This document shows positions 13,365 to 27,410 of a stretch of 35,479 bases of DNA, in pieces. The translations under genes and the position numbers were made by a program. The notes below the pieces were generated by a model. It saw only the letters and a list, made by a program, of their open reading frames with translations. It did no database searches and had not been told where the DNA came from. The stretch covers positions 1 through 35,479 of the forward strand of contig JANQJL010000105.1 of NCBI GenBank assembly GCA_028281675.1. Direction: 5' to 3'. Numbering within the stretch: position 1 is the first letter of the stretch; each line of letters starts with the position of its first letter. This stretch comes from Simkaniaceae bacterium (lineage in GTDB: Bacteria > Chlamydiota > Chlamydiia > Chlamydiales > Simkaniaceae).

Positions 13365-13506
13365 CTTCTTCTTCCTTTGCTGCTTCTTCATCTAACCCAT
13401 CGAGGGTAAGATGACATTTCAGCGATTTTGCCTCTAGAAACTCTTTTATCTCTGCCACCGGCATTTCCGACAACCATTCCAAAATTTTTCCCTCATTAAC
13501 TTTCAT
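13354..13506 (-). CDS. small 50-residue protein of the early operon
   Basis: A 51-codon frame that starts MKVNEGKILEWLSEMPVAE and ends EEDES. AAGGAGG precedes the ATG by nine bases. Both ends overlap neighbours by 11 bases through the same GAAGATGAAAGTT junction used elsewhere in this operon, which strongly supports expression. A helix LEWLSEMPVAEIKEFLEAKS makes up most of it. Function unknown. Confidence 0.65.
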   Translation of the reverse strand: MKVNEGKILEWLSEMPVAEIKEFLEAKSLKCHLTLDGLDEEAAKEEEDES

Positions 13507-13723
13507 CTTCTTTTTCCTCCTTTTTGATTTGGTGAAAGCTTTCTTTTAAAGAATCTAACATTTCATCCCCTAGTGCGGTGGAGACATTGTGCTCGCTTAA
13601 TATAGCTAGGATCACACTTCCTAACCCTTGCACGGCCGTGCTGGCCTGTGTTTTATTTATTAGTAATGTTTCTAATAAGAGATGCGCCACTCTTTTAATC
13701 TCTTCTTCAGCTTCTCGCTCCAT
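13496..13723 (-). CDS. small helical protein, paralogue of the next gene upstream
   Basis: 75 residues (EEEIKRVAHLLLETLLINKT, then GLGSVILAILSE, LGDEMLDSLKESFHQIKKEE). It aligns along its whole length with 13707-13934, giving a second tandem family: A.LL.ETL..N...A.(S/T)(I/V)Q..G...(V/L)A(I/M)LSE.......DSLKE......KKEE. AGAGGAAGAAG precedes the start. Its EDES end overlaps the next gene by 11 bases. Function unknown. Confidence 0.7.
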   Translation of the reverse strand: MEREAEEEIKRVAHLLLETLLINKTQASTAVQGLGSVILAILSEHNVSTALGDEMLDSLKESFHQIKKEEKEDES

Positions 13724-13934
13724 CTTCTTCCTCTTTTTTGAGTTCTCTTAATCTTTCTTTTAAAGAATCTAATGCTTCGTAGCCACGGGGGAGAGAAACC
13801 GCCTCGGATAACATAGCCACCAGCAGCTTTCCCGCTGCTTGGATACTCGTTGCTTGCTTTATTCCATTTGTCTGTAATGTTTCGAATAATAGAAGAGCGG
13901 CTTTTGCACTTTCTTGTTCGGTTATTTCATCCAT
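13707..13934 (-). CDS. small helical protein, paralogue of its downstream neighbour
   Basis: 75 residues (AKAALLLFETLQTNGIKQAT, then AAGKLLVAMLSE and YEALDSLKERLRELKKEE). It aligns with 13496-13723. AGGAGGAGTAAAAG precedes the start, three bases after the stop of the annealing-protein gene. Overlaps its partner by 17 bases. Its place right behind Bet could mean a role in recombination, but that is only context. Confidence 0.7.
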   Translation of the reverse strand: MDEITEQESAKAALLLFETLQTNGIKQATSIQAAGKLLVAMLSEAVSLPRGYEALDSLKERLRELKKEEEDGARS

Positions 13935-13937
13935 CTT

Positions 13938-14744
13938 TTACTCCTCCTCTTCAATTTGTAGTTTTGCATTCCATTTATGAAAAGCTTTCCAAAAGGTCTC
14001 GGGCTTTTCGTTTACCCACTTCTTCATCACGGGAATGGGCTGTTCATAATGAGTGCTAAGAAATTCTAAGTAAAGAGTTACTTTGTCTTTGTCGACCTCT
14101 TCAGGAATTTCTATTTCCACCTCATCTTCGGGAGAGATTCCCACTACTTCAGCAGTCAAGAACTCATCTTCATCGGGCTTTTTATTCATGCCATTTGCCA
14201 TCTCTTCAGAACTATAAAGGCCTCCTAGCTCAAAAGGAAAAGCTTTGCGAAGCGCATTAGATTCCGCGCATTTAGCCAGCATGATATGAGGCATTTTCTG
14301 CCAAAACTTTGAAACATAGGGGCGCTTTTTTTCATCTAGGAAGCTTTGAACATACTCCTTAAAATAAGCAGTCGCCGCCACTGTGTGCCACGTTCCATCG
14401 GGAGTCATTTTATTAACATAGGCTGTTGCACTTAGGAGCTCATTATTGGAGTTATAAGTATATTTAGGTTCAGCTCCAGGGGCATAACGTCCCGTTCTTT
14501 CTGCAATTGTGCGTAAACCATCAATGGAAAGTTGAATAGTCATTACTCCTTTACGCTTCACAGCATAGATTTGCTTCAAAAGAGGATCTACGCCAGCATG
14601 TTTGCAAGTATAAAGAAAGAGTTGGAGCTCATTATCAGTCGCCCCTTTACAGACCGTCTGTTTGATTAGATCAATTTGAGCAGGGGTAAAGGACTCAAAG
14701 ATAGAGCCCAAAGGTTCTGTGTTAGTTTTTGTTAAGGCACTCAT
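13938..14744 (-). CDS. bet: Red-beta/RecT-family single-strand annealing protein (Bet)
   Basis: 268 residues. FTPAQIDLIKQTVCKGATDN, the run ELQLFLYTCKHAGVDPLLKQ, IYAVKRKG then MTIQLSIDGLRTIAERTGRY, FWQKMPHIMLAKCAESNALRKAFP and ELGGLYSSEEM are the signature blocks of phage Bet proteins. The lambda protein has 261 residues, so length is normal. It coats single strands made by the exonuclease encoded at 15291-15887 and anneals them, giving recombination and concatemers. Ribosome site GAAGGAGAAGAAAA. The acidic C-terminal third (EDEVEIEIPEEVDKDK) resembles the partner-binding tail of this family. Confidence 0.92.
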   Translation of the reverse strand: MSALTKTNTEPLGSIFESFTPAQIDLIKQTVCKGATDNELQLFLYTCKHAGVDPLLKQIYAVKRKGVMTIQLSIDGLRTIAERTGRYAPGAEPKYTYNSNNELLSATAYVNKMTPDGTWHTVAATAYFKEYVQSFLDEKKRPYVSKFWQKMPHIMLAKCAESNALRKAFPFELGGLYSSEEMANGMNKKPDEDEFLTAEVVGISPEDEVEIEIPEEVDKDKVTLYLEFLSTHYEQPIPVMKKWVNEKPETFWKAFHKWNAKLQIEEEE

Positions 14745-14756
14745 TTTTCTTCTCCT

Positions 14757-14924
14757 TCAAATTGTGGTTAATTCTTCGTAAAAAGGACTAAGATAATCGG
14801 GATCTCCCAAAATATAATCCTCAAGACGCCGACGAGCCCATTCTATTGAAATACTTTCTAAGTCAGCGATTTCTTCAGCAGCCATTTCATAGGCCTCTTC
14901 ATATAAATGTGGGTCAACATTCAT
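14757..14924 (-). CDS. small acidic helical protein, unknown
   Basis: 55 residues beginning MNVDPHLYEEAYEMAAEEIA and containing SISIEWARRRLEDYILGDP. AAGGAG lies eight bases ahead of the ATG at 14924. A longer frame upstream has no ribosome site and would overlap the real gene at 14914-15084. The start sits inside the last codons of that gene (11-base overlap), the same junction type as in the MKVD cluster. Function unknown. Confidence 0.65.
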   Translation of the reverse strand: MNVDPHLYEEAYEMAAEEIADLESISIEWARRRLEDYILGDPDYLSPFYEELTTI

Positions 14925-15084
14925 CTTCTTTTCTCCTTGCTTGATAGATTTTTTCATAAAGCTCTTGGTAAAGATAGATCTCTTTCCATCTTTCAGGTTT
15001 AATGTGCGGGGAATTTTCCCGTTGAAACTCATAGGACTTATACATAAGCCAGTTTACCTCTTTCTCACAGATCGTAATCTTCAT
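14914..15084 (-). CDS. small 56-residue basic protein, easily missed
   Basis: A 57-codon frame, MKITICEKEVNWLMYKSYEF, then ERWKEIYLYQELYEKIYQAR and the end KEDEC. AGAGGAG lies seven bases before the ATG, and the gene overlaps both neighbours (20 bases with the one before, 11 with the one after). Aromatic-rich helices; function unknown. The end GAAGATGAATGTTGA mirrors the GAAGATGAAAGTTGA junction of the MKVD genes. Confidence 0.65.
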   Translation of the reverse strand: MKITICEKEVNWLMYKSYEFQRENSPHIKPERWKEIYLYQELYEKIYQARRKEDEC

Positions 15085-15307
15085 AAGATGGCTCCTCTAT
15101 AAACTTTTCTATATTGTTTTCAACATACTCGTAAAGGACCGTAAGGAGTTCCTCGGCATCTCCATTAAGTTTAGAAGAATGCACGCCATGCCGCGTTACA
15201 GCTTCACAAAAATCGCTAATGGTAGAATAGATGAAACGATTGCGCTCTTCTTCTAAGGGGTAAATATTGGGGCTTAAACAAGCCTTGGATCTAAGATAAC
15301 TCAACAT
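15065..15307 (-). CDS. small protein downstream of the exonuclease, unknown
   Basis: 80 residues beginning MLSYLRSKACLSPNIYPLEE and ending EEPSYEDYDL. AAGGAGG is four bases ahead of the ATG at 15307, which overlaps the exonuclease gene by 17 bases; the earlier in-frame start lies deep inside that gene and has no ribosome site. Mostly helical with an acidic C-terminus. Function unknown. Confidence 0.65.
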   Translation of the reverse strand: MLSYLRSKACLSPNIYPLEEERNRFIYSTISDFCEAVTRHGVHSSKLNGDAEELLTVLYEYVENNIEKFIEEPSYEDYDL

Positions 15308-15887
15308 TTTTCTCCTCCTTTTTGGTTGCTTTCTTTTTAGGGCGCTCTTCAATCAATTCGGTATAAAGAGAACGCGCATACTTGAATAAAGGTAAATAAA
15401 CATGAGGGTTATAGGTTCTGGCGTTAGGGTTTTTTAAGGTTTTTGGAATGTGTAGAATACAAGTTGAATCTACTTTCAGCTCATTGGCGTTACAGAGCTG
15501 CCAGTACGCGGAGAGTTGCACAGGATACGTCCGATAAATCTGAGAAGAAGTCTTGATATCCAACAAAACAAGAGCGCCCGTCTCTTTTATCTTTACGATG
15601 AGATCAGGCTTACCACAATATTTAAGCGCGTGCTCAAAGAGGCGTGTTTCAGAGAAAATGAGCTCTTCAACATTCTCATCGTACCATTTTTTAAAGTGAT
15701 CAAAATAGGGCGCGAACTCTTCATTGATAGAAGGGACAAAATCTCCCCGCGCATACGCTACACAATATTGATGAAGGATTGTGCCCCTAGAAGCAGCATG
15801 TTCTAGAGCGTCCGCAGGGACATTCGCCAGACCGATAGATGAATAAGGAGATAATATCTCACTTACGCGTGGGTACTTAAATTCCAT
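15291..15887 (-). CDS. PD-(D/E)XK nuclease, RecB/lambda-exonuclease-like
   Basis: 198 residues. The active-site frame is visible: E80 in FSETRL, D95 in GKPDLIV, D110-x-K112 in VLLDIKTSS, and Q124-x-x-x-Y128 in QLSAYWQL, the order of RecB-like nucleases. Early blocks VSEILSP and AASRGTILHQ are also typical. The nuclease would cut back 5' ends so that Bet can load. First gene of the minus operon; TAGGAGACAAACCC precedes the start. It ends in a Lys-rich tail (KKKATKKEEK). It could alternatively act as a Cas4-like nuclease, but the Bet pairing favours the exonuclease. Confidence 0.85.
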   Translation of the reverse strand: MEFKYPRVSEILSPYSSIGLANVPADALEHAASRGTILHQYCVAYARGDFVPSINEEFAPYFDHFKKWYDENVEELIFSETRLFEHALKYCGKPDLIVKIKETGALVLLDIKTSSQIYRTYPVQLSAYWQLCNANELKVDSTCILHIPKTLKNPNARTYNPHVYLPLFKYARSLYTELIEERPKKKATKKEEKNVELS

Positions 15888-15918
15888 GGGTTTGTCTCCT
15901 AGATTGGGGTTTTCTTAA

Positions 15919-15938
15919 ATCATACGCTGTTGTATGAT
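15919..15938. promoter_or_regulatory. inverted-repeat operator in the divergent early control region
   Basis: ATCATAC, six bases, GTATGAT: perfect 7-bp arms with a dyad typical of a HTH repressor site. It is midway between the start of the minus recombination operon (15887) and the HTH gene (15991). On the plus strand TTGAAG and TATTTA 16 bases apart lie just downstream (about 15941-15968). The HTH protein encoded at 15991 is the likely ligand. Confidence 0.6.
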
Positions 15939-15990
15939 GATTGAAGCATAACATGAAGGCAATATTTATTCCAAGGGAAAAAGTAAATTT

Positions 15991-16266
15991 ATGGAACTAA
16001 AAGATTATCTTGTCAAAAATGGCCTAAAGCAGAAATGGTTTGCCGAAAAAATAGGGATAAGACCCGAAAGACTTTCCGACTTTTTGAAGGAAAACCGTCC
16101 CCTTCCTCTTCAATATTTTAACAAAGTGGTGAGATTAACGAACGGGAAGGTCACACTGTTAGAACTCTTAAAACAAAACGAAAGGTATTACAAAAAAAAT
16201 GACAAGCGAAAGCACAAAAACCGTAAATGGAAAGATGTACACGTGGAAAATTCAGGTAATCGCTAA
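15991..16266 (+). CDS. Cro/C1-type helix-turn-helix regulator
   Basis: 91 residues. Residues 3-62 form a HTH_XRE-like domain: ELKDYLVKNGLKQKWFAEKI, then GIRPERLSDFLKENRPLP and LTNGKVTLLELL, where the NGKVTLLELL ending matches small Cro-like repressors. The C-terminal 25 residues are very basic. It sits directly behind the inverted-repeat operator and faces the minus operon, as in lambdoid control regions. It probably represses one or both early promoters. There is no integrase, so its presence alone does not show lysogeny. Confidence 0.75.
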   Translation: MELKDYLVKNGLKQKWFAEKIGIRPERLSDFLKENRPLPLQYFNKVVRLTNGKVTLLELLKQNERYYKKNDKRKHKNRKWKDVHVENSGNR

Positions 16267-16645
16267 CTATCCTCTTATTCCCAAGCGCGGGAAAAAGCCA
16301 AAATGTGAAAGCGGGACCCTCCACATTAAATGGACGATTGATGAACTCGAGCTTGAGCTTAGAGGAATTTTCTATTCAGCTCAGCGAAAAAACAAAAAGA
16401 TATGGGTGCGAATGCCCGACAAAAGAGGAGAAATTGAAGGAGAACGGTGTGACTTTCCCATCGTCGCGTTGACAAATAAAGAGGAGCGAAATTATTTTAA
16501 TAAAATCTTAAAAAAAGCTTTTAAAGAATTTATGAAGACATCAAAGTTTACTACGTCGGCATCTTCAGAAAAAAAAGAAAGAAAAAAACGAGCACTTAAA
16601 GGAATGGTGTTTAAAACTTTGAGCACCCCGCGGTTAAAAAGATAG
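16199..16645 (+). CDS. basic protein next to the regulator, unknown
   Basis: 148 residues if it starts at 16199, overlapping the regulator by 68 bases; an in-frame ATG at 16235 (MYTWKIQVIANYP) is the other choice and fits better as a domain start, though neither has a good ribosome site. Central hydrophilic beta/alpha sequence (WTIDELELELRGIFYSAQRK), and a C-terminal half full of Lys and Arg (EKKERKKRALKG). Likely nucleic-acid binding. Family not recognised. A terminator follows at 16754. Confidence 0.6.
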   Translation: MTSESTKTVNGKMYTWKIQVIANYPLIPKRGKKPKCESGTLHIKWTIDELELELRGIFYSAQRKNKKIWVRMPDKRGEIEGERCDFPIVALTNKEERNYFNKILKKAFKEFMKTSKFTTSASSEKKERKKRALKGMVFKTLSTPRLKR

Positions 16646-16690
16646 ATAAAAAGTATTCTTTTATTCTATCGTAAAAAGAGCTGCGGGGGT

Positions 16691-16765
16691 ATGGTGACAA
16701 AAAAAAAAGCACTTCATCTCAAAGACAAAGTGCCTCACCCCACCCTACCGAGCAAGAGAGGCTAA
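16691..16765 (+). CDS. possible 24-codon leader peptide before the initiator gene
   Basis: The frame MVTKKKALHLKDKVPHPTLP then SKRG ends in a TAA that lies in the loop of the terminator at 16754-16781. A GGGGG run is just upstream of the ATG. The arrangement resembles a translated attenuator: a ribosome at the stop would block the terminator and let transcription reach the initiator. Could be chance. Confidence 0.3.
   Translation: MVTKKKALHLKDKVPHPTLPSKRG
16699..16733 (-). terminator. minus-strand intrinsic terminator in the initiator leader
   Basis: GCACTT / AAGTGC with a 13-base loop, followed on the minus strand by ten T. No minus-strand gene ends here, so it may end an antisense RNA over the leader of the initiator gene. 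No clear minus-strand promoter was found. Confidence 0.55.
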
Positions 16766-16781
16766 ATGCCCTCTTTTTTTT
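16754..16781 (+). terminator. plus-strand terminator/attenuator before the initiator gene
   Basis: Stem AAGAG-(A bulge)-GGC / GCC-CTCTT with loop TAAAT and eight T. It is nested in a wider inverted repeat (CGAGCAAG 16749-16756, CTTGCTCG 16795-16802) whose left arm overlaps the stem, so the two structures may be alternatives. Confidence 0.6.
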
Positions 16782-16836
16782 AACACTAGCGCTCCTTGCT
16801 CGATAAGGAGACAAACCCCCAATAGGAGGTAGAATC

Positions 16837-17778
16837 GTGGGAAGCATACAAGACAGCCACAATAACGACAACCATTTTGTTCTTTTTTGCCCTTCTAAAC
16901 TTGCAGAGGATGAAAAAATATCCGATGGGGCTATTCGCACCTATCTTTTAATCTCAAACTTTCTCAATCGCGACGGCTACGCTTTTTGTTCTAATGAGTG
17001 GCTGGCTGAACGCCGAAAAACTACAGTTCGCGAAATTCAACGCCAACTTGAAGAACTGGAAAAGGGAGGGTATCTCTATCGCGAGATTTATTCTAAAGGC
17101 TTCCACAAACAAAGGCGCATTTGGGAAGCGGGCGCCTATGCTAAATATCTCCTAGGAATAGGCAAAGAAGACGAAGAATTCAAAAAATGTTTACGAGACG
17201 ACCATATGGTCACCTCCGACACGACCACACGGTCGCCTCCGATTACGACCACACGGTCGCCTATAATAAATAAGTATAATAGCAAAGAAGAAGCAACAAG
17301 CAGCGCTGCCGTTTCTCTTTCACCCCCTAAAGAAGAAAAAAAAGCACCTACCCCAAGCTTTTCTGAAGAGGAGCTTTCTTTGTTTGACCCTAGGCGTTCT
17401 TACCTAAAGGGCAAAAGCGCGGATGAGATTAGGCGCATTAAGATTTATTACGAGAAGAAGAAGCATACGATTTCTAACCCGACGGGATGGCTTATCAAAT
17501 GCATTGAAGGCCAATGGTATGCAAGCGATACATTATCAGACGCAGATTTGCAGAAGAACTTCAAATATGCACGGGATTTTGAAGAAAAGTTTAACAAAGA
17601 TCACAGCTGTGCTTACACCTATGTGGATGTCTCGGCTTCTCAAATTGTTATCGTGAAGGCCGGAGAAGAAATACATGCGCCTGTCCTCGAAATGAATCAT
17701 GAAAGGTTTAAAGCTCAGTTTAAGGAAACCATCAAGGAGAATTTTAATTATGAGAAAGTTTTGGCACTTTTGGCCTAG
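16837..17778 (+). CDS. phage replication initiator (lambda-O-like organisation)
   Basis: 313 residues with a GTG start six bases after AGGAGGT. N-terminal winged-helix domain at about residues 15-100: GAIRTYLLISNFLNRDGYAF, then NEWLAERRKTTVREIQRQLE and LEKGGYLYREI, the pattern of helix-turn-helix_36 replication proteins. A low-complexity linker (120-175) is encoded by DNA repeats. The C-terminal part (180-313) has DEIRRIKIYYEKKKHTISNP and TGWLIKCIEGQWY, as in initiators that recruit the helicase. No helicase or loader gene is seen, so host DnaB/DnaC would be used. First main gene of the plus early operon. Confidence 0.75.
   Translation: MGSIQDSHNNDNHFVLFCPSKLAEDEKISDGAIRTYLLISNFLNRDGYAFCSNEWLAERRKTTVREIQRQLEELEKGGYLYREIYSKGFHKQRRIWEAGAYAKYLLGIGKEDEEFKKCLRDDHMVTSDTTTRSPPITTTRSPIINKYNSKEEATSSAAVSLSPPKEEKKAPTPSFSEEELSLFDPRRSYLKGKSADEIRRIKIYYEKKKHTISNPTGWLIKCIEGQWYASDTLSDADLQKNFKYARDFEEKFNKDHSCAYTYVDVSASQIVIVKAGEEIHAPVLEMNHERFKAQFKETIKENFNYEKVLALLA
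17198..17262. other. iterons inside the initiator gene, candidate replication origin
   Basis: Three repeats start at 17198, 17221 and 17245 (spacing 23 and 24). Copies 2 and 3 share ACGACCACACGGTCGCCT exactly, and copy 1 is ACGACCATATGGTCACCT. Each holds an interrupted palindrome CGACC-4-GGTCG (one mismatch in copy 1). They lie between the DNA-binding and C-terminal domains and are followed by an AT-rich stretch (17263-17285), the layout of lambda ori inside gene O. Confidence 0.75.
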
Positions 17779-17803
17779 GTGCTCATTTGCGAAGGGGGTC
17801 TAA

Positions 17804-18076
17804 ATGATTGAAGTAAAAGAATTTGTTGATGAAGGCTGCGGGAAAATAGTGGCTCACTGTGAGCACCATATAAAGATTATTTTTCGGAGGGAAAATGTCC
17901 TCGAGGGAAGCTTCTCTTTTATAGAGAACGAGGGGAAAAGATTTGCGGATATTCGCGTTTCTCCTAACTGTTATTTGAGAGCGAGGTGCAGAGAATGTGA
18001 AGGACTCAAAGACTTTATGAAGAGCCTTTTAAGAGAATGGCACCAGCTAACAGATTTAGAAGAAGAAGAGTATTAA
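17804..18076 (+). CDS. small early protein, unknown (cluster member 1)
   Basis: 90 residues starting MIEVKEFVDEGCGKIVAHCE, ribosome site GAAGGGGGTC. Alternating hydrophobic beta strands (HIKIIFRRENVLEGSFSFIE), then a Cys-containing helix (CRECEGLKDFMKSLLREW). The plan of an N-terminal beta half and a final helix ending with a hydrophobic run is shared with the next two genes, hinting at an old duplication. No known family recognised. Confidence 0.7.
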   Translation: MIEVKEFVDEGCGKIVAHCEHHIKIIFRRENVLEGSFSFIENEGKRFADIRVSPNCYLRARCRECEGLKDFMKSLLREWHQLTDLEEEEY

Positions 18077-18090
18077 AAAGGAGAAGGCAA

Positions 18091-18363
18091 ATGCTTAAGA
18101 TAGAGAAGATTGAAATGTCCTCGGATTTTGAAACAATTTCCGTAAGGACAGACGAAGACGCGGAAGTGACTTTTAAGAGCGAGAGCATCGTATCTATTCG
18201 TATTTCTCTTGGAACCGACCTAACAGCCCCTTTTCTCACAGCCGTAGAGATATCTACTCACACATTTTTGTTGGAAGGAAGCTTGCTAGACTCGGAAGGG
18301 CTGTCAGAGTTTATAAAAAGATTTTGTGAATACCGTCTGGTCAAACCCATAGCGATAAAGTAA
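18091..18363 (+). CDS. small early protein, unknown (cluster member 2)
   Basis: 90 residues starting MLKIEKIEMSSDFETISVRT. I place the start at 18091 because AAGGAG lies seven bases ahead; the frame is open further back but only inside the previous gene. Beta-rich, ending with helix DSEGLSEFIKRFCEYRLV. Its 5' leader and first codons closely match those of 18718-19023, pointing to duplication. Function unknown. Confidence 0.7.
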   Translation: MLKIEKIEMSSDFETISVRTDEDAEVTFKSESIVSIRISLGTDLTAPFLTAVEISTHTFLLEGSLLDSEGLSEFIKRFCEYRLVKPIAIK

Positions 18364-18377
18364 AAAGGAGAAGACAA

Positions 18378-18725
18378 ATGATCGATATAAACAAAATGGA
18401 AGTGAGTGACCCTTACCACATTCAAGTTGGTAAAGTGTCCATTCGCGAAGGGATTGAACCCATTACTGACTGTGACACAATCCTCGCATATCATTCTCCT
18501 ACCGTATGGATTTCATTTGGTATTAATGACATACGTGAAATCACTATTTCAGCGTTTGAAGAGGGTGAGCCCCACTGTTTTATGACCCTTTCTTATAACC
18601 TTACTCTTAAAGTTTACTTTAAAGAATGTGAGCTTCTACGTTTACTTATTAGCACTTTTTTAGGATCTACTCAGCTTTTACCTTTTGAGGAAAAGATAAA
18701 ACATAAGGAGAAGATAAATGATTAA
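18378..18725 (+). CDS. small early protein, unknown (cluster member 3)
   Basis: 115 residues starting MIDINKMEVSDPYHIQVGKV, with AAAAGGAGAAGACAA before the ATG. Beta strands in the first 90 residues (TVWISFGINDIREITISAF, then LTLKVYFKECELLRLLI) and a short final helix. Overlaps the next gene by 8 bases. Same general plan as members 1 and 2. Function unknown. Confidence 0.7.
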   Translation: MIDINKMEVSDPYHIQVGKVSIREGIEPITDCDTILAYHSPTVWISFGINDIREITISAFEEGEPHCFMTLSYNLTLKVYFKECELLRLLISTFLGSTQLLPFEEKIKHKEKIND

Positions 18726-19023
18726 GATAGAAAAGATTACACCGGTGGTCAGAGGCTGCGTAACGGCCGAGATAGACATCAGCGTTGAGAAATGGAAGCT
18801 CACCATCCGTAAGATTCAAGAATGTGTTAAGGATGGTCGCCGTTGGTTTAACTGGCCCTCCTTCTCTGAAGAGGTGGATGGCAAGAAGGTTTGGGAGCAC
18901 TACATGGTTTTTCATGAGCAAGAGCATCACAAGCAGTTCTTTGAGACCATTCGCCAAAAGGTAGACGAGATGAGAGCCAATAACCGCACAAACTTTTCCG
19001 ATGATGAAGGAGTGCCATTTTGA
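18718..19023 (+). CDS. small early protein, unknown (cluster member 4)
   Basis: 101 residues starting MIKIEKITPVVRGCVTAEID. The upstream AAGGAGAAGATAAATG and the first codons nearly repeat those at 18091. The middle, VKDGRRWFNWPSFSEEVDGK, with an aromatic Trp-Phe-x-Trp-Pro core, resembles the central part of transcriptional coactivator p15 / SpoVG-like single-strand-binding proteins (R.WFN.PS). A nucleic-acid role is therefore possible but unproven. The C-terminus contains HEQEHHKQFFETIRQ. Confidence 0.65.
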   Translation: MIKIEKITPVVRGCVTAEIDISVEKWKLTIRKIQECVKDGRRWFNWPSFSEEVDGKKVWEHYMVFHEQEHHKQFFETIRQKVDEMRANNRTNFSDDEGVPF

Positions 19024-19289
19024 AAAGCATGACAGTAGAAGAATACATCCACCTTCTTCATGAAGCCTTCCCTGAGAAGTACTTTGCTTCGTATGACTCC
19101 TTCAACTTCTCAAAGGGCGCAATTGAGGATGGTTTAAACCGCATAGAGGAGAATTGCGTAGAGGGAGAAGTCTTAATTGAGGAAAACCATCTTTTCCCTT
19201 CTGAAGTGCAGCATTTGCTTCGCCAAACCCAAGCTATCGCCAATATATTAAAAATTTCATTAAGAGAGTTTTCCCTTAAAAAAAAGTAG
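19020..19289 (+). CDS. small early protein, unknown, TTG start
   Basis: 89 residues. The start is taken as the TTG at 19020, which overlaps the previous TGA (TTGA) and has AAGGAG seven bases ahead; the ATG at 19029 would be 16 bases from that site. Two helices (VEEYIHLLHEAFPEKYF and VQHLLRQTQAIANILKISLR) with a short beta part between them. Function unknown. Confidence 0.65.
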   Translation: MKSMTVEEYIHLLHEAFPEKYFASYDSFNFSKGAIEDGLNRIEENCVEGEVLIEENHLFPSEVQHLLRQTQAIANILKISLREFSLKKK

Positions 19290-19297
19290 GATAATAG

Positions 19298-19642
19298 ATG
19301 GATAAAACCTTAAGAGAAGTGCTGGAAACCACCCAAAAAATAGTTCCCGAGTTTGATATGAGGCTGGGGCAGCTCAATGAAGAAGACCACCGCGTCTTCA
19401 TTCCCCCTATCTCTTCATGGTATCTTTACATAGATGCGATGCTGAGCATTTGCGATCAAATTATGGGCCGTTTAGAGGAGCTTCCCGATATTCCTGAGGT
19501 TGAGGAGATCTATACGCGAGGTTCCGATCTCTTGTGCCTTGTGGGAGCTTTTAAGGCGTTTTGCTGCTGCACTGTTGATAGGCTCAAACAAGAAGAAGAG
19601 ATTCACGAGGAAAGATTAAGAAAATACAGAAAAGACTTTTAA
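19298..19642 (+). CDS. early helical protein, unknown
   Basis: 114 residues, helical throughout (LREVLETTQKIVPEFDMRLG, then YIDAMLSICDQIMGRLEELP). A cysteine cluster FKAFCCCTVDRLKQEEE lies near the C-terminus. It starts eight bases after the previous gene; ATAATAG precedes, so the ribosome site is poor. Function unknown. Confidence 0.65.
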   Translation: MDKTLREVLETTQKIVPEFDMRLGQLNEEDHRVFIPPISSWYLYIDAMLSICDQIMGRLEELPDIPEVEEIYTRGSDLLCLVGAFKAFCCCTVDRLKQEEEIHEERLRKYRKDF

Positions 19643-19651
19643 GGAGGCTGT

Positions 19652-20320
19652 ATGAAATGTTATGAAGAGAAAACAGTAAATACTTTTTTGGAGGTAATCG
19701 ATAATCTCCAGAAAGACATCGAGAGGTTTAAAGAAGCCACAAAGAAAGAGGTGCAAATGCCCCCCGCTGTGTGCAGAGGAAATGGAGAAGATATTCTATC
19801 TAAAAAAGAAAAGAAACGCGACGCGCGCCCACCCACCAATGCCATCGCAAAAGCTCTTGATGGAGCTCCTCACTTCCTTACAAGTATGGACCTTATAGAT
19901 CTAAAATTAGCAGAACACACAGGGCAGCTTTCTTTAGAGAGACGGATGAAGGTGGGGATTCCTTACATCCAAATAAAAAATCTCTATCGTTATCCTCGTT
20001 CTTTAGTAAAGATTTATTTAAACAAGCTCCAAGCGGACCACAGTGTTGTTTTGTTACAATCTGAGAAAGAAGACCTTATTAAAGACCAACTATCGAGAGC
20101 TCTTAACTTTTTTAGCGGTTTTCCCTCTAAAATTTCGAGCGCTTCCTTAGCGGCAACGGGGCTTGCATCAAAAAGTTTTCTCTGTACGATTTTTCCCGAA
20201 CATGTTCAATATAAATTTGAAAATAAAAAATTTATGTTCCTTAAAGAAAACTTAACACGCTTTTTGAGAAACCACCTTCATCTGTGTGGGTTAGAGCCGT
20301 ATGCTCAAGATTTAAAGTAA
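19652..20320 (+). CDS. protein with an excisionase-like DNA-binding segment, unknown
   Basis: 222 residues, ribosome site AAGGAGG. N-terminal coiled coil (about 5-35), Lys/Arg-rich linker (50-62), then DLIDLKLAEHTGQLSLERRM and KVGIPYIQIKNLYRYPRSLV. The stretch GIPYIxIxxLYRYPRxxVxxYL matches the wing of MerR/excisionase-type helix-turn-helix domains (G.P.ikig...r...ed...yl). The helical C-terminal half (130-222) is unknown. A DNA-binding regulator is the best guess. It is the largest gene in this part of the operon. Confidence 0.6.
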   Translation: MKCYEEKTVNTFLEVIDNLQKDIERFKEATKKEVQMPPAVCRGNGEDILSKKEKKRDARPPTNAIAKALDGAPHFLTSMDLIDLKLAEHTGQLSLERRMKVGIPYIQIKNLYRYPRSLVKIYLNKLQADHSVVLLQSEKEDLIKDQLSRALNFFSGFPSKISSASLAATGLASKSFLCTIFPEHVQYKFENKKFMFLKENLTRFLRNHLHLCGLEPYAQDLK

Positions 20321-20338
20321 AATAGGAGAAATTATCCA

Positions 20339-20572
20339 ATGAATAACAATAGCCAAGAAGTTTACTGGGAAAACACCATTCATTTTGCTCGAGAATTCAT
20401 AAAAAGAGTAGAAAACTGGTGGGAAAGAGACTATTGCCCTCCCTTTGAAGTAGAAGGCATCAATCACATTTTTGAGGGTTATCTTAATCTTCTAGTAGAA
20501 AATGCTCAAAAATACTTAGAATGCTGTAAAAAAAATAAGGACACTCAAGAAGAAGAGGAGGTAAGTAAATGA
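20339..20572 (+). CDS. small early protein, unknown
   Basis: 77 residues, helical with many aromatics (VYWENTIHFAREFIKRVENW, then EGYLNLLVENAQKYLECCKK) and an acidic end (KDTQEEEEVSK). TAGGAG is present 10-15 bases ahead. Overlaps the next gene by four bases (ATGA). It recalls hydrophilic helical phage proteins of the early region; no function can be assigned. Confidence 0.65.
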   Translation: MNNNSQEVYWENTIHFAREFIKRVENWWERDYCPPFEVEGINHIFEGYLNLLVENAQKYLECCKKNKDTQEEEEVSK

Positions 20573-20832
20573 CACCGATGGGATGGCGATATGTGGATGA
20601 TGAATGGATAAATTTTTCAAAGCTCACCTCTATTGTAATCGTTCCCTATGATAATTGCTATCACAATGTAGGATGGATAATACAGGGAAACTTTAGGAAA
20701 GATCACGAGCATCGCTTCCAATTATTTAATCGAGTATTTAAAACTCAAGAAAATGCGAAAGCCTTTTTAGAAGTTTTTATGATAGAGGGTGATTTAGGGG
20801 TTAATCCTCATATTTACACCCCTACTATATGA
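20569..20832 (+). CDS. WRYVDDEWINF-family small protein, copy 1
   Basis: 87 residues starting at an ATGA overlap. GWRYVDDEWINFSKLTSIVI, then W(I/E)I...., FQLFNRVFKTQENAKAFLEV. The gene at 22436-22711 has the same plan (NWIFIDGRWVNFSTIGQVW, then VFKLFEEAFDTHEAAQEFLD), so they are paralogues. Small beta strands followed by one helix. Function unknown. Confidence 0.65.
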   Translation: MTPMGWRYVDDEWINFSKLTSIVIVPYDNCYHNVGWIIQGNFRKDHEHRFQLFNRVFKTQENAKAFLEVFMIEGDLGVNPHIYTPTI

Positions 20833-20842
20833 GGTGAGGCCA

Positions 20843-21133
20843 ATGAGTGAATATAGTGATTTTATAAAGGATGAATTAGGATTTTCTCAAGAAACAGTGG
20901 AGGAGCTTAAAAAATATTCGGAATTAGATTTACAGATGTGCAAATTTCTGCACGAGTGTGCGCGAGATTTTTCTCCTGAGCTCGTTTTTAGAGTTTTGAA
21001 AGATTGGGTAGAAAGACTAGAAGAATCTTACCAACGAAGTCTTGTCAATTCTATTCAGAAACCTCCGAAGCCTCCTAAAATTTTTCCCAACTGTGCGAAT
21101 TGCGCAGATTATATGGATTGTGATAATGAGTGA
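20843..21133 (+). CDS. small early protein with a C-terminal Cys cluster
   Basis: 96 residues. The ATG at 20843 follows GAGGTGAGG closely; a GTG at 20834 is in frame but poorly placed. Helical body (FSPELVFRVLKDWVERLEES), then a short linker with PPKPPK and the end FPNCANCADYMDCDNE, where three cysteines (C-x2-C-x5-C) could bind a metal or be part of a small knuckle. Overlaps the next gene by eight bases. Confidence 0.65.
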   Translation: MSEYSDFIKDELGFSQETVEELKKYSELDLQMCKFLHECARDFSPELVFRVLKDWVERLEESYQRSLVNSIQKPPKPPKIFPNCANCADYMDCDNE

Positions 21134-21404
21134 AGATGAGGATTTTTTAGAAAAAGAATGGGGATTTGCCACAGAACCAGTACGTATTTGTACGGTAAGA
21201 AAGAATTATCCTAAAGAAGGCGATAAGGGATGGGTTTTTGCTTCCTCTTCTAAAGCGTGGACTAAAATAATCGTCCGCTCTCTTGTCAATGAAGAAGGAG
21301 AAAAATTTTTAGGATGGGTGCGTGCAGACCGGGAAGGATTAGCTCAATGTACCCCTGTTTTAAAAGATGATGTGTGGGTCAAAGATGAAGAAGAGGAAAC
21401 ATAA
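21126..21404 (+). CDS. small early protein, unknown
   Basis: 92 residues starting MSEDEDFLEKEWGF. The ATG at 21126 lies in the last codons of the previous gene (8-base overlap); the frame upstream is within that gene and has no start signal. Mixed beta content with many tryptophans (GDKGWVFASSSKAWTKIIVR, FLGWVRADREGLAQCTPVL), and an acidic end. Could be a small SH3-like barrel; unproven. Confidence 0.65.
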   Translation: MSEDEDFLEKEWGFATEPVRICTVRKNYPKEGDKGWVFASSSKAWTKIIVRSLVNEEGEKFLGWVRADREGLAQCTPVLKDDVWVKDEEEET

Positions 21405-21766
21405 TGAGTGAAAGACTTCTCATCTGCTACGAAAAGAATATTGAAGAAGATGATGATTTTTTTGACTGTATTTACACAGAGAAAGGTACTTTACAGTTGT
21501 TGTTGGATGACTGGCTAAATTATGATGCCCATACAGGAACATTTTTTAATTTATTACGCATTCAAGTGAGAGATAAAGAATTACTCCCTTTATTTATGAA
21601 AGATTTCTGTCAGTTAAAACATTATGTTCCCATTGATACGTTGATGGATTGCGTTTCCCTTTCCATGGATGGAGTCAAAATTCAAGAAAACAAAAAATAC
21701 AAAGAATTTGTAGAAAATCTTATCCATGTAAGTTTGTGTACAAGTTTGGTAAAGGAGAAAAGATAG
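21404..21766 (+). CDS. small early protein, unknown
   Basis: 120 residues at a TAATG overlap. N-terminal beta/acidic section (LLICYEKNIEEDDDFFDC), then helices (LLRIQVRDKELLPLFMKDF and KEFVENLIHVSLCTSLVKE). It resembles the two-part plan of the 17804-18725 genes, with a beta half and a helix, but similarity is too low to call it a paralogue. Confidence 0.65.
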   Translation: MSERLLICYEKNIEEDDDFFDCIYTEKGTLQLLLDDWLNYDAHTGTFFNLLRIQVRDKELLPLFMKDFCQLKHYVPIDTLMDCVSLSMDGVKIQENKKYKEFVENLIHVSLCTSLVKEKR

Positions 21767-21916
21767 ATGAGACCTGATCAAAAGCTTTTTTATGTTTTTG
21801 CCGATCGCGTGTTAGGTCATATAACAGAGAGGTATAGGGACACGTTTGCTGAGAGCGAGCTAGAAGATTTGCTTCTTTTGATTGACGTCATATACTATTT
21901 GAAGGCTGCAACATAA
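21767..21916 (+). CDS. small 49-residue protein closing the early sub-operon
   Basis: A 50-codon frame beginning the base after the previous stop, with AAAGGAGAAAAG ahead. MRPDQKLFYVFADRVLGHIT, then ESELEDLLLLIDVIYYLKAA. Helical, with a strongly hydrophobic C-terminal half. The ribosome site and tight spacing support it. Function unknown. Confidence 0.6.
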   Translation: MRPDQKLFYVFADRVLGHITERYRDTFAESELEDLLLLIDVIYYLKAAT

Positions 21917-21972
21917 TGGATATTATCGGACGGTGAACAAGAAGGCCTTTGAAATTGTAATATTTGGAAAAG

Positions 21973-22013
21973 CTACCAATTTCTACCAATCTCTACCAAA
22001 TTGGTAGAAACAT
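21973..22013. repeat. CTACCAA iteron cluster 1
   Basis: CTACCAA starts at 21973, 21983 and 21993, an exact 10-bp period, and is followed by the inverted copy TTGGTAG at 22001-22007. One helical turn between copies would place bound proteins on the same DNA face. Bases 21982-22013 recur at 22325-22356. Confidence 0.8.
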
Positions 22014-22027
22014 CCTATCGAGGTTAC

Positions 22028-22089
22028 CCCGTTATATAAGGCGTTTGTATGAGGGGTTACCCCCCCAGATAAACCCCTTATATAACGGG
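22028..22089. repeat. long inverted repeat, cruciform or hairpin
   Basis: Perfect 14-bp arms: CCCGTTATATAAGG (22028-22041) and CCTTATATAACGGG (22076-22089), 34 bases apart. A second, inner pair GGGGTT / AACCCC lies between them. No U-tract follows, so it is not an ordinary terminator. Confidence 0.8.
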
Positions 22090-22220
22090 TTAATATGAAA
22101 TGAAGAAAATGAAGGGGAAAAATGTTAGCCGTTTCCATAATTCAAAAAATCTATAAAGTGGTGGGAACGTCTCTTTGTGGGGATATGAAGCGATGCTCAT
22201 TTATGAGCTCCCTTAAAAGA

Positions 22221-22247
22221 AAAAACCCGAGTTTGCTGACTCGGGCT
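22221..22247 (-). terminator. minus-strand intrinsic terminator
   Basis: CCCGAGT / ACTCGGG, 6-base loop, then TTTTTTCTTTT on the minus strand; flanking bases extend the stem by two weaker pairs. No minus-strand protein gene precedes it within 10 kb. Confidence 0.75.
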
Positions 22248-22279
22248 CTTGTGAAAACCTTTCGGCATTCATACGTTTT
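22221..22279 (-). ncRNA. candidate minus-strand small RNA of about 58 nt
   Basis: Predicted from a promoter at 22286-22315 and an intrinsic terminator at 22221-22247. Besides the terminator hairpin, the first half can pair AAAAC with GTTTT. No gene on this strand. It lies between the two CTACCAA clusters. The call depends on the promoter being active. Confidence 0.35.
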
Positions 22280-22285
22280 AGCCTG

Positions 22286-22315
22286 ATTATGTCATTTATA
22301 TGAAGTAAAAGGCAA
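22286..22315 (-). promoter_or_regulatory. possible minus-strand promoter
   Basis: On the minus strand TTGCCT (22315-22310), 18 bases, CATAAT (22291-22286). The -10 box has five of six consensus bases. It points at the terminator about 40 bp further on. Confidence 0.4.
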
Positions 22316-22324
22316 GAGAAAAAA

Positions 22325-22356
22325 TCTACCAATCTCTACCAAATTGGTAGAAACAT
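22325..22356. repeat. CTACCAA iteron cluster 2
   Basis: A 32-bp exact copy of 21982-22013: CTACCAA at 22326 and 22336 and inverted TTGGTAG at 22344-22350. It lies 80 bp before the next gene, so it may also control that gene. Confidence 0.8.
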
Positions 22357-22435
22357 GTATAAAAATTCAGAAAAAATGAACATGAGGGGCTTCTCATGTA
22401 TAAAAAAATGAAGAAAATGAACATAAGGAGAACCT

Positions 22436-22711
22436 ATGGGTAATTGGATTTTTATCGACGGGCGCTGGGTGAATTTTAGTACAATTGGTCAGGTCTGGAC
22501 AACTAATCAATCTTTTTCTGAGGAAGGGCCGTGGGAAATATGGGCCGAAAGTCCAGGAAAAGATGGAGAGGTTTTTAAATTATTTGAGGAAGCCTTCGAT
22601 ACCCATGAAGCAGCTCAAGAATTTTTGGATGAACTTATAGTTCAAAATGAACTCTCCTTAAAAATCATGAAGAAGAACGAGAAAGAGTTGAAAAAAGTGG
22701 GGAAAACATGA
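22436..22711 (+). CDS. WRYVDDEWINF-family small protein, copy 2
   Basis: 91 residues, ribosome site AAGGAG. NWIFIDGRWVNFSTIGQVW, EGPWEIWAESPGKDGEVF and KLFEEAFDTHEAAQEFLDEL align with 20569-20832. The C-terminal tail is a Lys-rich helix not shared with copy 1. First gene after the repeat block, overlapping the next by four bases. Function unknown. Confidence 0.65.
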   Translation: MGNWIFIDGRWVNFSTIGQVWTTNQSFSEEGPWEIWAESPGKDGEVFKLFEEAFDTHEAAQEFLDELIVQNELSLKIMKKNEKELKKVGKT

Positions 22712-23052
22712 CAATAGAATGGTTAGATGAAGAAGATGAAGAAATAGTGGAACTTTTAAAGGAGATGGAGGGAAAAGAAGTAGAACTCTTGAACCAAGGA
22801 GGCGCTATGCTCCACGAGTTTCATGGATGTATTTTAAGAAAGATTGATACAAGGTTTTCTCACTGGAAAAGGCTGGCGGTTTCTATCTCTATTCTAGAGG
22901 AGCTTTTTTCGGTCTATTTAGCCATTGCTCTCCGCAGGAGCGAGCCATTCGGGCTGCAAACAGATATCCAAAAGTGGATAGAAATTCATAGGGAGACCTT
23001 GTTAAAAGCTTATGAAAAAGAGGGAGAGAAGATCTCTAAAGAAAAGTCATAA
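22708..23052 (+). CDS. small early protein, unknown
   Basis: 114 residues at an ATGA overlap. Acidic N-terminus (EWLDEEDEEIVELLKEMEGK), then a longer helical part (LAVSISILEELFSVYLAIAL). The middle, AVSISILEELFSVYLAIALR then PFGLQTDIQKWIE, recalls the MKVD family of the minus operon (AISL..AP..LLAFQTI), so a distant relation is possible. Confidence 0.65.
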   Translation: MTIEWLDEEDEEIVELLKEMEGKEVELLNQGGAMLHEFHGCILRKIDTRFSHWKRLAVSISILEELFSVYLAIALRRSEPFGLQTDIQKWIEIHRETLLKAYEKEGEKISKEKS

Positions 23053-23117
23053 AAATATATTGTAAAAATATTTCAAAGATTTGATAGTGGGCTTCTTTTA
23101 CTCATCAAGGAGGTGTT

Positions 23118-23477
23118 ATGAGTCATCAAACTATAACCCGTTCTCCCGCTCCTCAACCAAACCCTAAATATCTCAGTGTCCCAGACCAAGAAAGAGCTGA
23201 TCATGAAGAGCGCGGGATCAATTCTTTTGAAACAACCAGCAGTTATCTAGACAGTGAAGAGTTTCGTAAGATAAAGAAAACCCAACGCATTTGGAACGCT
23301 TTTTTTAAATTGGTGGCTTTCCTTTTTCTTGCGTGGGCCGTTGCTTCCGCGCATGGGATGATATTTTCTAATACTTTTAGCAAAATGTGGGCCATTCAAG
23401 GAGGGGTGAGTGGGGTGATTGGACTTGTTGTGTTTTTATGGAAAGAGAGGCATAGTTATCAATATGGTTTGGATTAG
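23118..23477 (+). CDS. two-span membrane protein, unknown
   Basis: 119 residues, ribosome site AAGGAGG. A 58-residue hydrophilic N-terminus, then membrane segments at about 61-79 (AFFKLVAFLFLAWAVASA) and 92-108 (AIQGGVSGVIGLVVFLW), with a short charged end. Two spans and a small size are compatible with a holin, but the long N-terminal part is unusual for one. It may instead alter the host membrane early. The next gene is a single-span peptide. Confidence 0.7.
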   Translation: MSHQTITRSPAPQPNPKYLSVPDQERADHEERGINSFETTSSYLDSEEFRKIKKTQRIWNAFFKLVAFLFLAWAVASAHGMIFSNTFSKMWAIQGGVSGVIGLVVFLWKERHSYQYGLD

Positions 23478-23541
23478 CATTTTATTTGTAGGGGGAGTCT
23501 TAATCACTATGGAGATTTTGAAAAGAGGAGGCCATATATGA
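23464..23541 (+). CDS. 25-residue single-span membrane peptide
   Basis: A 26-codon frame that overlaps the previous gene by 14 bases and the next by four (ATGA), exactly filling the gap. Product MVWISILFVGGVLITMEILK then RGGHI: one hydrophobic span with positive residues at the end. Its tight coupling suggests a real gene. Possible partner of the two-span protein. Confidence 0.5.
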   Translation: MVWISILFVGGVLITMEILKRGGHI

Positions 23542-23759
23542 CGACCAAGTGGCTATACCTAGAACAGAGTAATGAGTTAATCAATTGTGATTTTATTACT
23601 TACATTAAATTTCTGGATTCTAACGGAGATTCTCTTGTGTTTGAGTTTTCAGATCGACCGGCCATTTCTTATAAATCTAAGAAATATAAGACTCGAAGTA
23701 CTTTTGAGGAAATTTTTTGTTTCCTAGAAACGAGCTATAATCATACATTGAGGTTATAA
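23538..23759 (+). CDS. small early protein, distant member of the WRYVDDEWINF group
   Basis: 73 residues, GAGGAGGCC ahead of the ATG. TTKWLYLEQSNELINCDFIT, then YIKFLDSNGDSLVFEFSD and TFEEIFCFLE. The order W-x-Y/F-strand, IN/VN motif, strand, final helix matches 20569 and 22436, but identity is low. Function unknown. Confidence 0.6.
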   Translation: MTTKWLYLEQSNELINCDFITYIKFLDSNGDSLVFEFSDRPAISYKSKKYKTRSTFEEIFCFLETSYNHTLRL

Positions 23760-24055
23760 TGACGATACACACACGAGAAGAGGATGAAGGCCCTCACCCT
23801 TATGTTGAAGAGGATACCGATATTCACCATTATTATGGAGAATGGGCATCTTATAATGATGAAAAAGAAAAAAAAGAAATACGCACGTATCTCGAATTAT
23901 GGAAAAAATATTTTTTGCGCAAGCTTCCTTCCACATTATCGTTTGTAGAAGAACAATGGATTGACGGGCCCACCGATCCCTACAGTCTGAATCTTCCTAC
24001 CTTGGGATTGAAAATAAAAATGAAGGGAATCCTTGAAGATGAGGAAGAAGAATAA
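23759..24055 (+). CDS. small acidic protein, unknown
   Basis: 98 residues at a TAATG overlap. Acidic and His/Tyr-rich start (EEDEGPHPYVEEDTDIHHYY), then a helix (KKEIRTYLELWKKYFLRKL), and an acidic end. No family recognised. Confidence 0.6.
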   Translation: MTIHTREEDEGPHPYVEEDTDIHHYYGEWASYNDEKEKKEIRTYLELWKKYFLRKLPSTLSFVEEQWIDGPTDPYSLNLPTLGLKIKMKGILEDEEEE

Positions 24056-24301
24056 ATGGTTTTAAAAAAACACCAGTCCCCTTCAGGGGGGCTATCAGAG
24101 GCAGGCAGAAAATATTATAAACGGACTACAGGAGCCAATCTCAAAAAACCTGTAACGGGCAAAGTAAAAGCGGGGGGTAAGGCTTCTAAAAGACGCAAGA
24201 GCTTTTGTGCACGAATGTCAGGAGTAAAAGGCCCTCTCAAAGACACCAAAGGAAGACCCACGCGAAAAGCTCTTGCTTTAAGAAAATGGAAATGTCCATG
24301 A
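24056..24301 (+). CDS. DUF6321-like small basic protein
   Basis: 81 residues. GGLSEAGRKYYKRTTGANLK, the block KPVTGKVKAGGKASKRRKSF, CARMSGVKGPLKDTKGRPTR and KALALRKWKC are a highly conserved series that I recognise from a widespread small basic domain in phages and large algal viruses (DUF6321 in Pfam). About one third of residues are Lys or Arg. The role is not known; nucleic-acid binding or virion packaging is possible. It abuts the previous gene and overlaps the next (ATGA). Confidence 0.8.
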   Translation: MVLKKHQSPSGGLSEAGRKYYKRTTGANLKKPVTGKVKAGGKASKRRKSFCARMSGVKGPLKDTKGRPTRKALALRKWKCP

Positions 24302-26855: not shown

Positions 26856-27410
26856 ATGTGTAGCAATGTTCTTTTTCTTACGAATACGCTTACCCAAAAA
26901 AAACTGTGCCTATCTGTGTGTTGGGAAGGGATATGGGTTCCGATGGAAGATATGCAGAAGAGGTATGATCAGTTTTTAGAAGAGCAGCGCCGAGAAAATC
27001 CCGAAAGCTCTTTGAAATCGTGTGTTTTAGATTATGAGCATCCCTTTTCCTTCACCACTAAAAGCTATCAAGAAAATTATTTACGTAGAAAATTTAAAGA
27101 GGCTTCTCTAAAGTCGGCCGAGGGATTGGAATCCCAAACTCAAAAACAGGAGTTAATGATGAATTTTCAACAAGCGACCTTAGCGGCAAAAGCGGGAGCG
27201 CGTCTTACACGTCCCTCGTGGGAACCCAATATGTATATGTGGTGGGATGGAAGTTATTTTGTCCATTCTCATCCCTATTTTCCTTTTCAACCCAAATCTC
27301 CTTCTCTTGCGGGCTACTTCTATGTTGTCGAAAAAGATGACGCGGAAGCTAATGACTGGAAAATTGTAGCCCCCGATCCTAAAATTTCAACTCAATCTCT
27401 TTCTTCTTAA
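26856..27410 (+). CDS. Tad2-like (DUF2829) anti-defence candidate with N-terminal extension
   Basis: 184 residues, ribosome site AAAGGAG. Residues 102-173 match DUF2829/Tad2: MNFQQATLAAKAGARLTRPS, W122, MYMWWDG, GYFYVV and DDAEANDWKIV (family: F..Al...k.Gk...R.gW....mY......D..A.DW.vv). Phage Tad2 proteins bind the Thoeris signal gcADPR and block that defence; whether this one does is inference. The first 100 residues match nothing I know. AGGAG six bases before M102 could start a separate 83-residue domain-only product at 27159. Placed between terminase and portal. Confidence 0.7.
   Translation: MCSNVLFLTNTLTQKKLCLSVCWEGIWVPMEDMQKRYDQFLEEQRRENPESSLKSCVLDYEHPFSFTTKSYQENYLRRKFKEASLKSAEGLESQTQKQELMMNFQQATLAAKAGARLTRPSWEPNMYMWWDGSYFVHSHPYFPFQPKSPSLAGYFYVVEKDDAEANDWKIVAPDPKISTQSLSS

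What the first reader, a model, noticed from the sequence alone, without database searches (positions are those of the whole stretch)
17198..17285. Lambda-O-like replication origin inside the initiator gene
Seen: three 23/24-bp-spaced repeats, each an interrupted palindrome CGACC-N4-GGTCG, in the middle of the initiator gene, followed by an AT-rich stretch. They encode the linker between the winged-helix and C-terminal parts. Known: lambda ori has palindromic iterons in the linker region of gene O. Inferred: the product binds these copies and opens the AT-rich part. The repeat sequence differs from lambda, so this could be an independent case of the same design.
Basis: partly seen in the sequence, partly recalled or inferred. 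Interest (0 to 1): 0.8.

Follow-up and report, generated by a model that had tools for sequence, protein, structure and literature searches.

The report
Phage replication origin inside initiator gene
A phage found with a chlamydia-type bacterium carries three mirror-symmetric DNA repeats inside the gene for its replication starter protein, most likely the landing sites for that same protein and so the place where copying of the phage genome begins; the design is known from other phages.

Summary
No other such close pair is in the 1.88-Mb assembly. They encode residues ~121-142, a predicted disordered linker after a winged helix; an AT-rich stretch follows. The contig is a ~35.4-kb tailed phage with identical ends in a Chlamydiota bin.
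Relatives show what it is. Of 131 nonredundant related phage initiators, 57 carry dyad arrays in their own gene, 121 of 123 spacings being 21-24 bp, with arms differing between lineages. Arms co-vary with the recognition helix: Arg at window position 69 predicts G at half-site position 4. Written down in advance, this held in 15 of 16 Arg versus 0 of 8 non-Arg held-out initiators. So the product very probably binds these repeats. It works like the lambda origin, but the protein matches HTH_36 (as BK5-T and phage 77 do), not Phage_rep_O. In-gene origins are published; the recognition rule did not appear in the listings.

The parts
16837..17778 (+). replication initiator gene (313 aa, GTG start)
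   Evidence: HTH_36 E 3.7e-7; PHROG replication-initiation families phrog_428, 678, 186, 270 at E 5.5e-7 to 3.2e-5
16918..17076 (+). codons 28-80: HTH_36 winged-helix DNA-binding domain
   Evidence: 10-residue pLDDT means 80, 82, 59, 77, 85, 75 over residues 21-80
17029..17043 (+). recognition-helix codons Arg65 to Arg69, the two residues whose counterparts co-vary with half-site positions 6 and 4
17199..17212 (.). iteron 1, CGACC-ATAT-GGTCA (dyad 17200-17211)
17222..17235 (.). iteron 2, CGACC-ACAC-GGTCG (dyad 17223-17234)
17246..17259 (.). iteron 3, CGACC-ACAC-GGTCG (dyad 17247-17258)
17263..17290 (.). AT-rich stretch next to iteron 3, presumed unwinding element
   Evidence: 3/25 GC at its lowest; in 11 of 11 initiators with arrays the 40 nt 3' of the array are lower in GC than the ORF

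Best explanation
It is the phage's replication origin, embedded in the gene of its own initiator. The winged helix of the initiator binds each GACC-N4-GGTC dyad, probably as a dimer. Three bound units about 23 bp apart form a nucleoprotein complex that strains and opens the AT-rich DNA at about 17263-17290, and the C-terminal part recruits the host replicative helicase. Shown here: the anatomy, its recurrence in relatives, and the co-variation of recognition helix and repeat. Inferred: dimer binding, strand opening, helicase recruitment and start of replication at this place.
For: Repeats beyond chance and unique as a close pair in the assembly. Same anatomy in relatives: with one detector, 33 of 77, 19 of 40 and 5 of 14 nonredundant initiators carry arrays, against 2 of 385 shuffles and 10 of 205 control ORFs. 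121 of 123 spacings are 21-24 bp; the array starts a median 27 nt after the wHTH match; the 40 nt 3' of the array are lower in GC than the ORF in 11 of 11. Half-site similarity follows recognition-helix identity more than the rest of the domain (Spearman 0.28 v 0.11; partial Mantel p 0.001), and the recognition helix is the best window in a scan of the whole domain (p for the maximum 0.014). Arg69 column to G4: training 16 of 19 v 1 of 14, held-out 13 of 13 v 0 of 6, second set 2 of 3 v 0 of 2. The residue state changes about 12 times on the tree; 17 of 20 matched pairs fit, 0 the reverse. The BK5-T record marks a repeat region at the same place. In-gene origins are reported for TP901-1 and Tuc2009 (passages of PMC8965321), for SPP1 and, as a suggestion, 80alpha (passages of PMC5499656), and lambda (passages of PMC5043065 and PMC7466680).
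Against: No binding or replication data for this phage. 74 of 131 nonredundant relatives show no array by my detector. Control ORFs fire at 10 of 205 (of the 8 printed, one is antisense to an initiator, the others unexplained). G115:C388, the one phage found with both a close portal (55%) and this initiator, has only two dyads. The last 129 residues have no Pfam match up to E 0.1 and are modelled poorly, so helicase recruitment is unsupported by sequence. The local cumulative GC-skew minimum (windows within 13501-15750) lies 1.5 kb or more away and is confounded by a gene-strand switch.
Confidence: 0.88

Rival explanations
1. The dyads are an operator by which the protein represses or times its own gene (autoregulation), and the origin lies elsewhere.
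For: Dyads bound by winged helices are often operators (recalled); the co-variation argues for binding, not for replication.
Against: The array lies about 360 nt inside the gene and no copy lies elsewhere in the phage or, as a close pair, in the assembly. The only two promoter-like sites in 15800-18000 are at 16469 and 16808, not at the repeats, though this is no more than shuffles give. The DNA 3' of the array is AT-rich relative to the ORF in 11 of 11. Published cognates are origins.
Confidence: 0.08
2. The repeats are kept for the peptide (a repetitive linker such as TTTRSP), and the DNA symmetry is incidental.
For: Copies 2 and 3 are in the same frame and both encode TTTRSP.
Against: Copy 1 is in another frame. 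Of 73 spacings in relatives, 54 (22, 23 or 25 bp) are not multiples of 3. Dyad arms co-vary with the DNA-contacting helix. Collagen-type peptide repeats do give GACC-N4-GGTC triples, but with 27-bp spacing.
Confidence: 0.02
3. The array is a packaging or partition site.
For: Iteron-like arrays also occur in partition sites (recalled).
Against: No partition family appeared among the 50 window proteins searched against PHROGs, though most of these had no match at all; and the same layout is tied to initiator genes in many phages.
Confidence: 0.02

Closest known systems
HTH_36-type phage initiators with repeats in their own gene: Lactococcus phage BK5-T ORF49, Staphylococcus phage 77 initiator
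   Same: HTH_36 domain in the N-terminal part; dyad array after it at 22-24 bp; AT-rich DNA 3' of it; BK5-T record annotates the repeat region
   Different: Other dyad arms (TTACA, TTGAC), other C-terminal parts (phage 77 has Phg_2220_C); phage 77 has a DnaC-like helicase loader next door, none was recognised in the window
Lactococcal TP901-1 ORF13 and Tuc2009 Rep2009 replisome organizers
   Same: Reported to bind repeat-rich DNA within their own genes that serves as origin (passages of PMC8965321)
   Different: Not compared by sequence here
Phage lambda O and ori-lambda
   Same: Four inverted repeats bound by O dimers, followed by a 40-bp AT-rich region (passages of PMC5043065), in the middle of gene O (passages of PMC7466680)
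   Different: Window protein does not match Phage_rep_O; repeats differ; lambda uses a separate protein, P, to bring in the helicase (passages of PMC5499656)
A Phage_rep_O protein in IMG/VR (L026)
   Same: Same dyad core GACC-N4-GGTC, three copies, in-gene
   Different: Lambda-O family by Pfam, so the shared core is probably convergent (inference)

Membership tests
HTH_36-type phage replication initiators | N-terminal HTH_36 winged helix above the curated cut-off | tested here: met
   E 3.7e-7, 30.3 bits against a cut-off of 25
HTH_36-type phage replication initiators | Match to phage replication-initiation profiles | tested here: met
   phrog_428, 678, 186, 270 and weaker ones
HTH_36-type phage replication initiators | In-gene dyad array after the wHTH at 21-24 bp (present in 57 of 131 relatives, so not a strict criterion) | tested here: met
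HTH_36-type phage replication initiators | Residue at the Arg69 column predicts half-site base 4 | tested here: met
   window has Arg69 and G4, but the window was in the training set, so this is not independent
Phage_rep_O (lambda O) family | PF04492 match | tested here: not met
   only HTH_36 reported up to E = 1; PHROG 'O-like' matches are weak (phrog_678 E 8.2e-7)
Lambda-type origin (way of working) | Dyad iterons inside the initiator gene followed by AT-rich DNA | tested here: met
Lambda-type origin (way of working) | Initiator binds the iterons and opens the AT-rich part | not testable with these tools
   binding supported indirectly by co-variation; opening not at all
Lambda-type origin (way of working) | Phage-coded helicase loader next to the initiator | tested here: inconclusive
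   no loader or helicase profile matched any of the 18 ORFs searched from 17804 to 24301, but 17 of the 18 matched nothing at all

The most novel reading that the evidence does not exclude
Because each of these initiator genes carries the binding sites of its own product, sequence alone pairs a DNA-reading helix with its target. From such pairs a recognition code can be read: the residue at the Arg69 column sets half-site base 4 (Arg to G) and the residue at the Arg65 column sets base 6 (V/I/F/L to T, Arg to C). Large numbers of uncultured phage initiators could thus have their origins and specificities read off from sequence, and an in-gene origin would be a self-consistent unit that changes specificity by co-evolving helix and repeats inside one gene.
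Probability: 0.7. Interest if true: 0.65.

Novelty: new member of a known kind. Interest (0 to 1): 0.5.

Why it matters
The origin itself is a further case of a known design, here in a tailed phage from a Chlamydiota bin. The gain is general: 57 of 131 nonredundant relatives carry the same readable layout, and protein-DNA co-variation gives a testable recognition rule for winged-helix initiators, which would let origins be located and initiator specificity be predicted in uncultured phages.

Tried and rejected
Searching for exact repeats: 71 stretches of viral contigs hold triples of GACC-N4-GGTC, mostly collagen-like coding repeats with 27-bp spacing. L010 and L026 are initiators with such arrays by family search. 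L014 looks alike but matched no family, so I do not count it. In L007, L042, L071 and L065 no ORF of 60 aa or more holds the whole triple; no family search was run on their neighbours.

Close relatives: for the window protein, tblastn gave 1 weak hit in INPHARED and none in PLSDB, IMG/VR none, distant blastn in INPHARED none; the L107 protein found none in IMG/VR.

Of 4 RecT-related IMG/VR loci, L074 and L075 hold this initiator profile, L077 another initiator with two dyads 45 bp apart, L076 none found.

Portal-bearing relatives in the phylum mostly carry other or unseen replication modules: 3 of 232 genomes match the initiator profile, one of them (G058) only over a 106-aa frame, while 10 of 232 match the portal; several of those contigs are fragments. 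The genome of L139 (51% portal) has no initiator match.

Structure: only the wHTH is modelled with confidence (mean pLDDT 44.8), so no fold search was run. A PDB sequence search found nothing better than E 0.03.

Statistics against the reading: in the training set alone the best residue-by-base cell (column 59, base 4) is only just above the 95% level of the permutation maximum (z 5.4 v 5.3), and in the first held-out set alone 7.5 v 5.7 with a permutation maximum of 7.9. The column-55 rules were first seen in all 52 arrays together, so their counts in the first held-out set (V/I/F/L to T6: 7 of 7 v 0 of 12; Arg to C6: 3 of 3 v 6 of 16) are not clean. The second set gave no case for the former, 3 of 3 v 1 of 2 for the latter, and 2 of 2 for Arg+Arg to GTC. 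Rows dropped before counts: 118 to 77 as redundant; 80 to 40, of which 17 as training-like; 79 to 14, of which 56 as like earlier sets.

Full report
1. What is there. The window is contig C102 of a 1.88-Mb, 108-contig assembly. Its first and last 99 bases are identical, so it is probably a circular or terminally redundant molecule of about 35.4 kb. It encodes terminase, portal and major head protein, a RecT-like annealing protein and an exonuclease and a RusA resolvase: a tailed phage. The gene 16837-17778 encodes 313 residues with an HTH_36 domain and weak but consistent matches to phage replication-initiation profiles. Within it lie three dyads GACC-N4-GGTC at 17200, 17223 and 17247. The next 25 bases are among the most AT-rich 0.43% of the window's 25-mers.

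2. Where it sits in the protein. The repeats encode residues about 121-142. The predicted model (9 sequences) is fairly confident only for the winged helix (10-residue pLDDT means of 59 to 85 over residues 21-80); residues 123-179 have no predicted secondary structure and pLDDT near 30. Copy 1 is read in another frame than copies 2 and 3. The DNA, not the peptide, is the repeated thing.

3. Relatives. No close relative of the gene was found. Through the neighbouring RecT gene, 2 of 4 IMG/VR loci were found to hold a related initiator with its own array: L074 with CCGCA-N4-TGCGG-type dyads three times at 23 bp, L075 with TCGC-N3-GCGA. The L074 protein then matched 101 of 50,697 INPHARED records, of which I fetched 16. 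In the first survey (38 initiator ORFs, many of them near-identical), 11 carry arrays by the rule 'two perfect 5-nt-arm dyads or three perfect 4-nt-arm dyads', against 2 of 157 control ORFs. One of the two control hits is an antisense ORF of an initiator, the other is itself an initiator by PHROG (phrog_428). The 40 nt 3' of the array are lower in GC than the ORF in 11 of 11. The Lactococcus phage BK5-T record annotates a repeat region at this place.

4. Larger survey. With one detector fixed throughout (perfect 5-nt-arm dyad, further copies with up to 2 mismatches at 19-27 bp, score 18 or more), arrays were found in 33 of 77, 19 of 40 and 5 of 14 nonredundant initiators, together 57 of 131. 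Controls: 2 of 385 mononucleotide shuffles and 10 of 205 other ORFs. Of 123 spacings, 121 are 21-24 bp (71 of 73, 39 of 39, 11 of 11), although 19-27 was allowed. The array starts a median 27 nt after the wHTH match. Arms differ from lineage to lineage. The 74 initiators without an array by this detector count against universality; some ORFs are cut by contig ends or end soon after the wHTH, and some may have imperfect or other repeats.

5. Does the protein read the repeats? If so, the DNA-reading helix should co-vary with the dyad arms. On the first 33 arrays, half-site similarity correlates with identity of the recognition helix (Spearman 0.28, Mantel p 0.0015), also given the rest of the domain (0.26, p 0.001), and less with the rest (0.11). 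Sliding an 8-residue window over the whole domain, the recognition helix is the best window (p for the maximum 0.014; 0.012 after dereplication to 27). The best single residue is the column of window Arg69. I then wrote down the rule 'Arg here means G at half-site position 4' and fetched new sequences. Training set: 16 of 19 Arg against 1 of 14 non-Arg; held-out: 13 of 13 against 0 of 6; second held-out: 2 of 3 against 0 of 2. The residue state changes about 12 times on a tree built without the helix, and in 20 disjoint matched pairs of closest Arg/non-Arg relatives, 17 have G only in the Arg member and 0 the reverse. Over all 52 arrays the two strongest residue-by-base cells are column 55 with base 6 and column 59 with base 4 (z 9.3 and 9.2; permutation 95% level 5.3, maximum 8.1): residues i and i+4 of the recognition helix, as a helix in the major groove would have it. 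Window Arg65 and Arg69 and its half-site (A T G G T C G from the axis outward) fit the common Arg+Arg pattern G-T-C. Caveats: the dyad axis is assigned by rule and a few registers may be off (e.g. L193), related sequences are not independent, and neither sub-set alone is far above its permutation maximum.

6. Mechanism. Best supported: initiator dimers bind the three dyads, the complex opens the adjacent AT-rich DNA, and host helicase is brought in. The first step is supported by co-variation; the others rest on analogy with lambda (inverted repeats for O dimers followed by a 40-bp AT-rich region, passages of PMC5043065; origin in the middle of O, passages of PMC7466680). No loader or helicase was recognised among the 18 downstream ORFs searched, 17 of which matched nothing, so recruitment may fall to the C-terminal part, which has no Pfam match up to E 0.1.

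7. What is known. Passages read: TP901-1 ORF13 and Tuc2009 Rep bind repeats in their own genes that act as origin (PMC8965321); 80alpha ORF20 is suggested to contain the origin, as SPP1 gene 38 does, with lambda O called unrelated (PMC5499656). Passages of PMC4887207 describe a helicase loader of phage 77; those shown say nothing of its origin. So an origin inside an initiator gene is established in several families, and this one is a new member. The listings showed no recognition code or survey of such arrays, but most subscription journals are not in the library; that lambdoid phages differ in O/ori type specificity is known to me from memory.

8. Host. The one titled Simkaniaceae (G011) is in the same family as the window's assembly. 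Portal relatives occur in 10 of 232 genomes of the phylum, the window's own included, but of the 10 named loci five bear other titles (Methylococcaceae, Verrucomicrobia, Myxococcales, Acidobacteria, Deltaproteobacteria). Binning error cannot be excluded; a chlamydial host is likely, not proven.

Noticed in passing
window 1-99 and 35381-35479: Identical 99-bp ends: apparently a complete tailed-phage genome binned with a Chlamydiota (Simkaniaceae-family) assembly; portal matches in 10 of 232 genomes of the phylum, the window's own included. Tailed phages of chlamydiae are little described as far as I recall.
   Followed up: partly
window 26856-27410: Protein with a Tad2-like (Thoeris anti-defence 2-like) domain at residues 102-171 of 184, E 1.1e-9, between terminase and portal.
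   Followed up: no
window 17804-24301: Run of small ORFs downstream of the initiator; of 18 searched, 1 matched any PHROG family. The proteins at 20569-20832 and 22436-22711 are paralogous (25.7% over 74 aa, E 1.8e-7).
   Followed up: partly
L121, L123, L135 and others, 3' of the arrays: In several Gram-positive phages the AT-rich part repeats TAATAATACAAG-like 12-mers (seen by eye), which could be a second, shared origin element.
   Followed up: no
L026:9086-9946: A Phage_rep_O protein with three in-gene GACC-N4-GGTC dyads, the same core as in the window: possible convergence on one half-site by two initiator families.
   Followed up: no
window 7949-9355: Protein with a match to a polysaccharide deacetylase family over residues 353-447 (phrog_24355, E 1e-8).
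   Followed up: no
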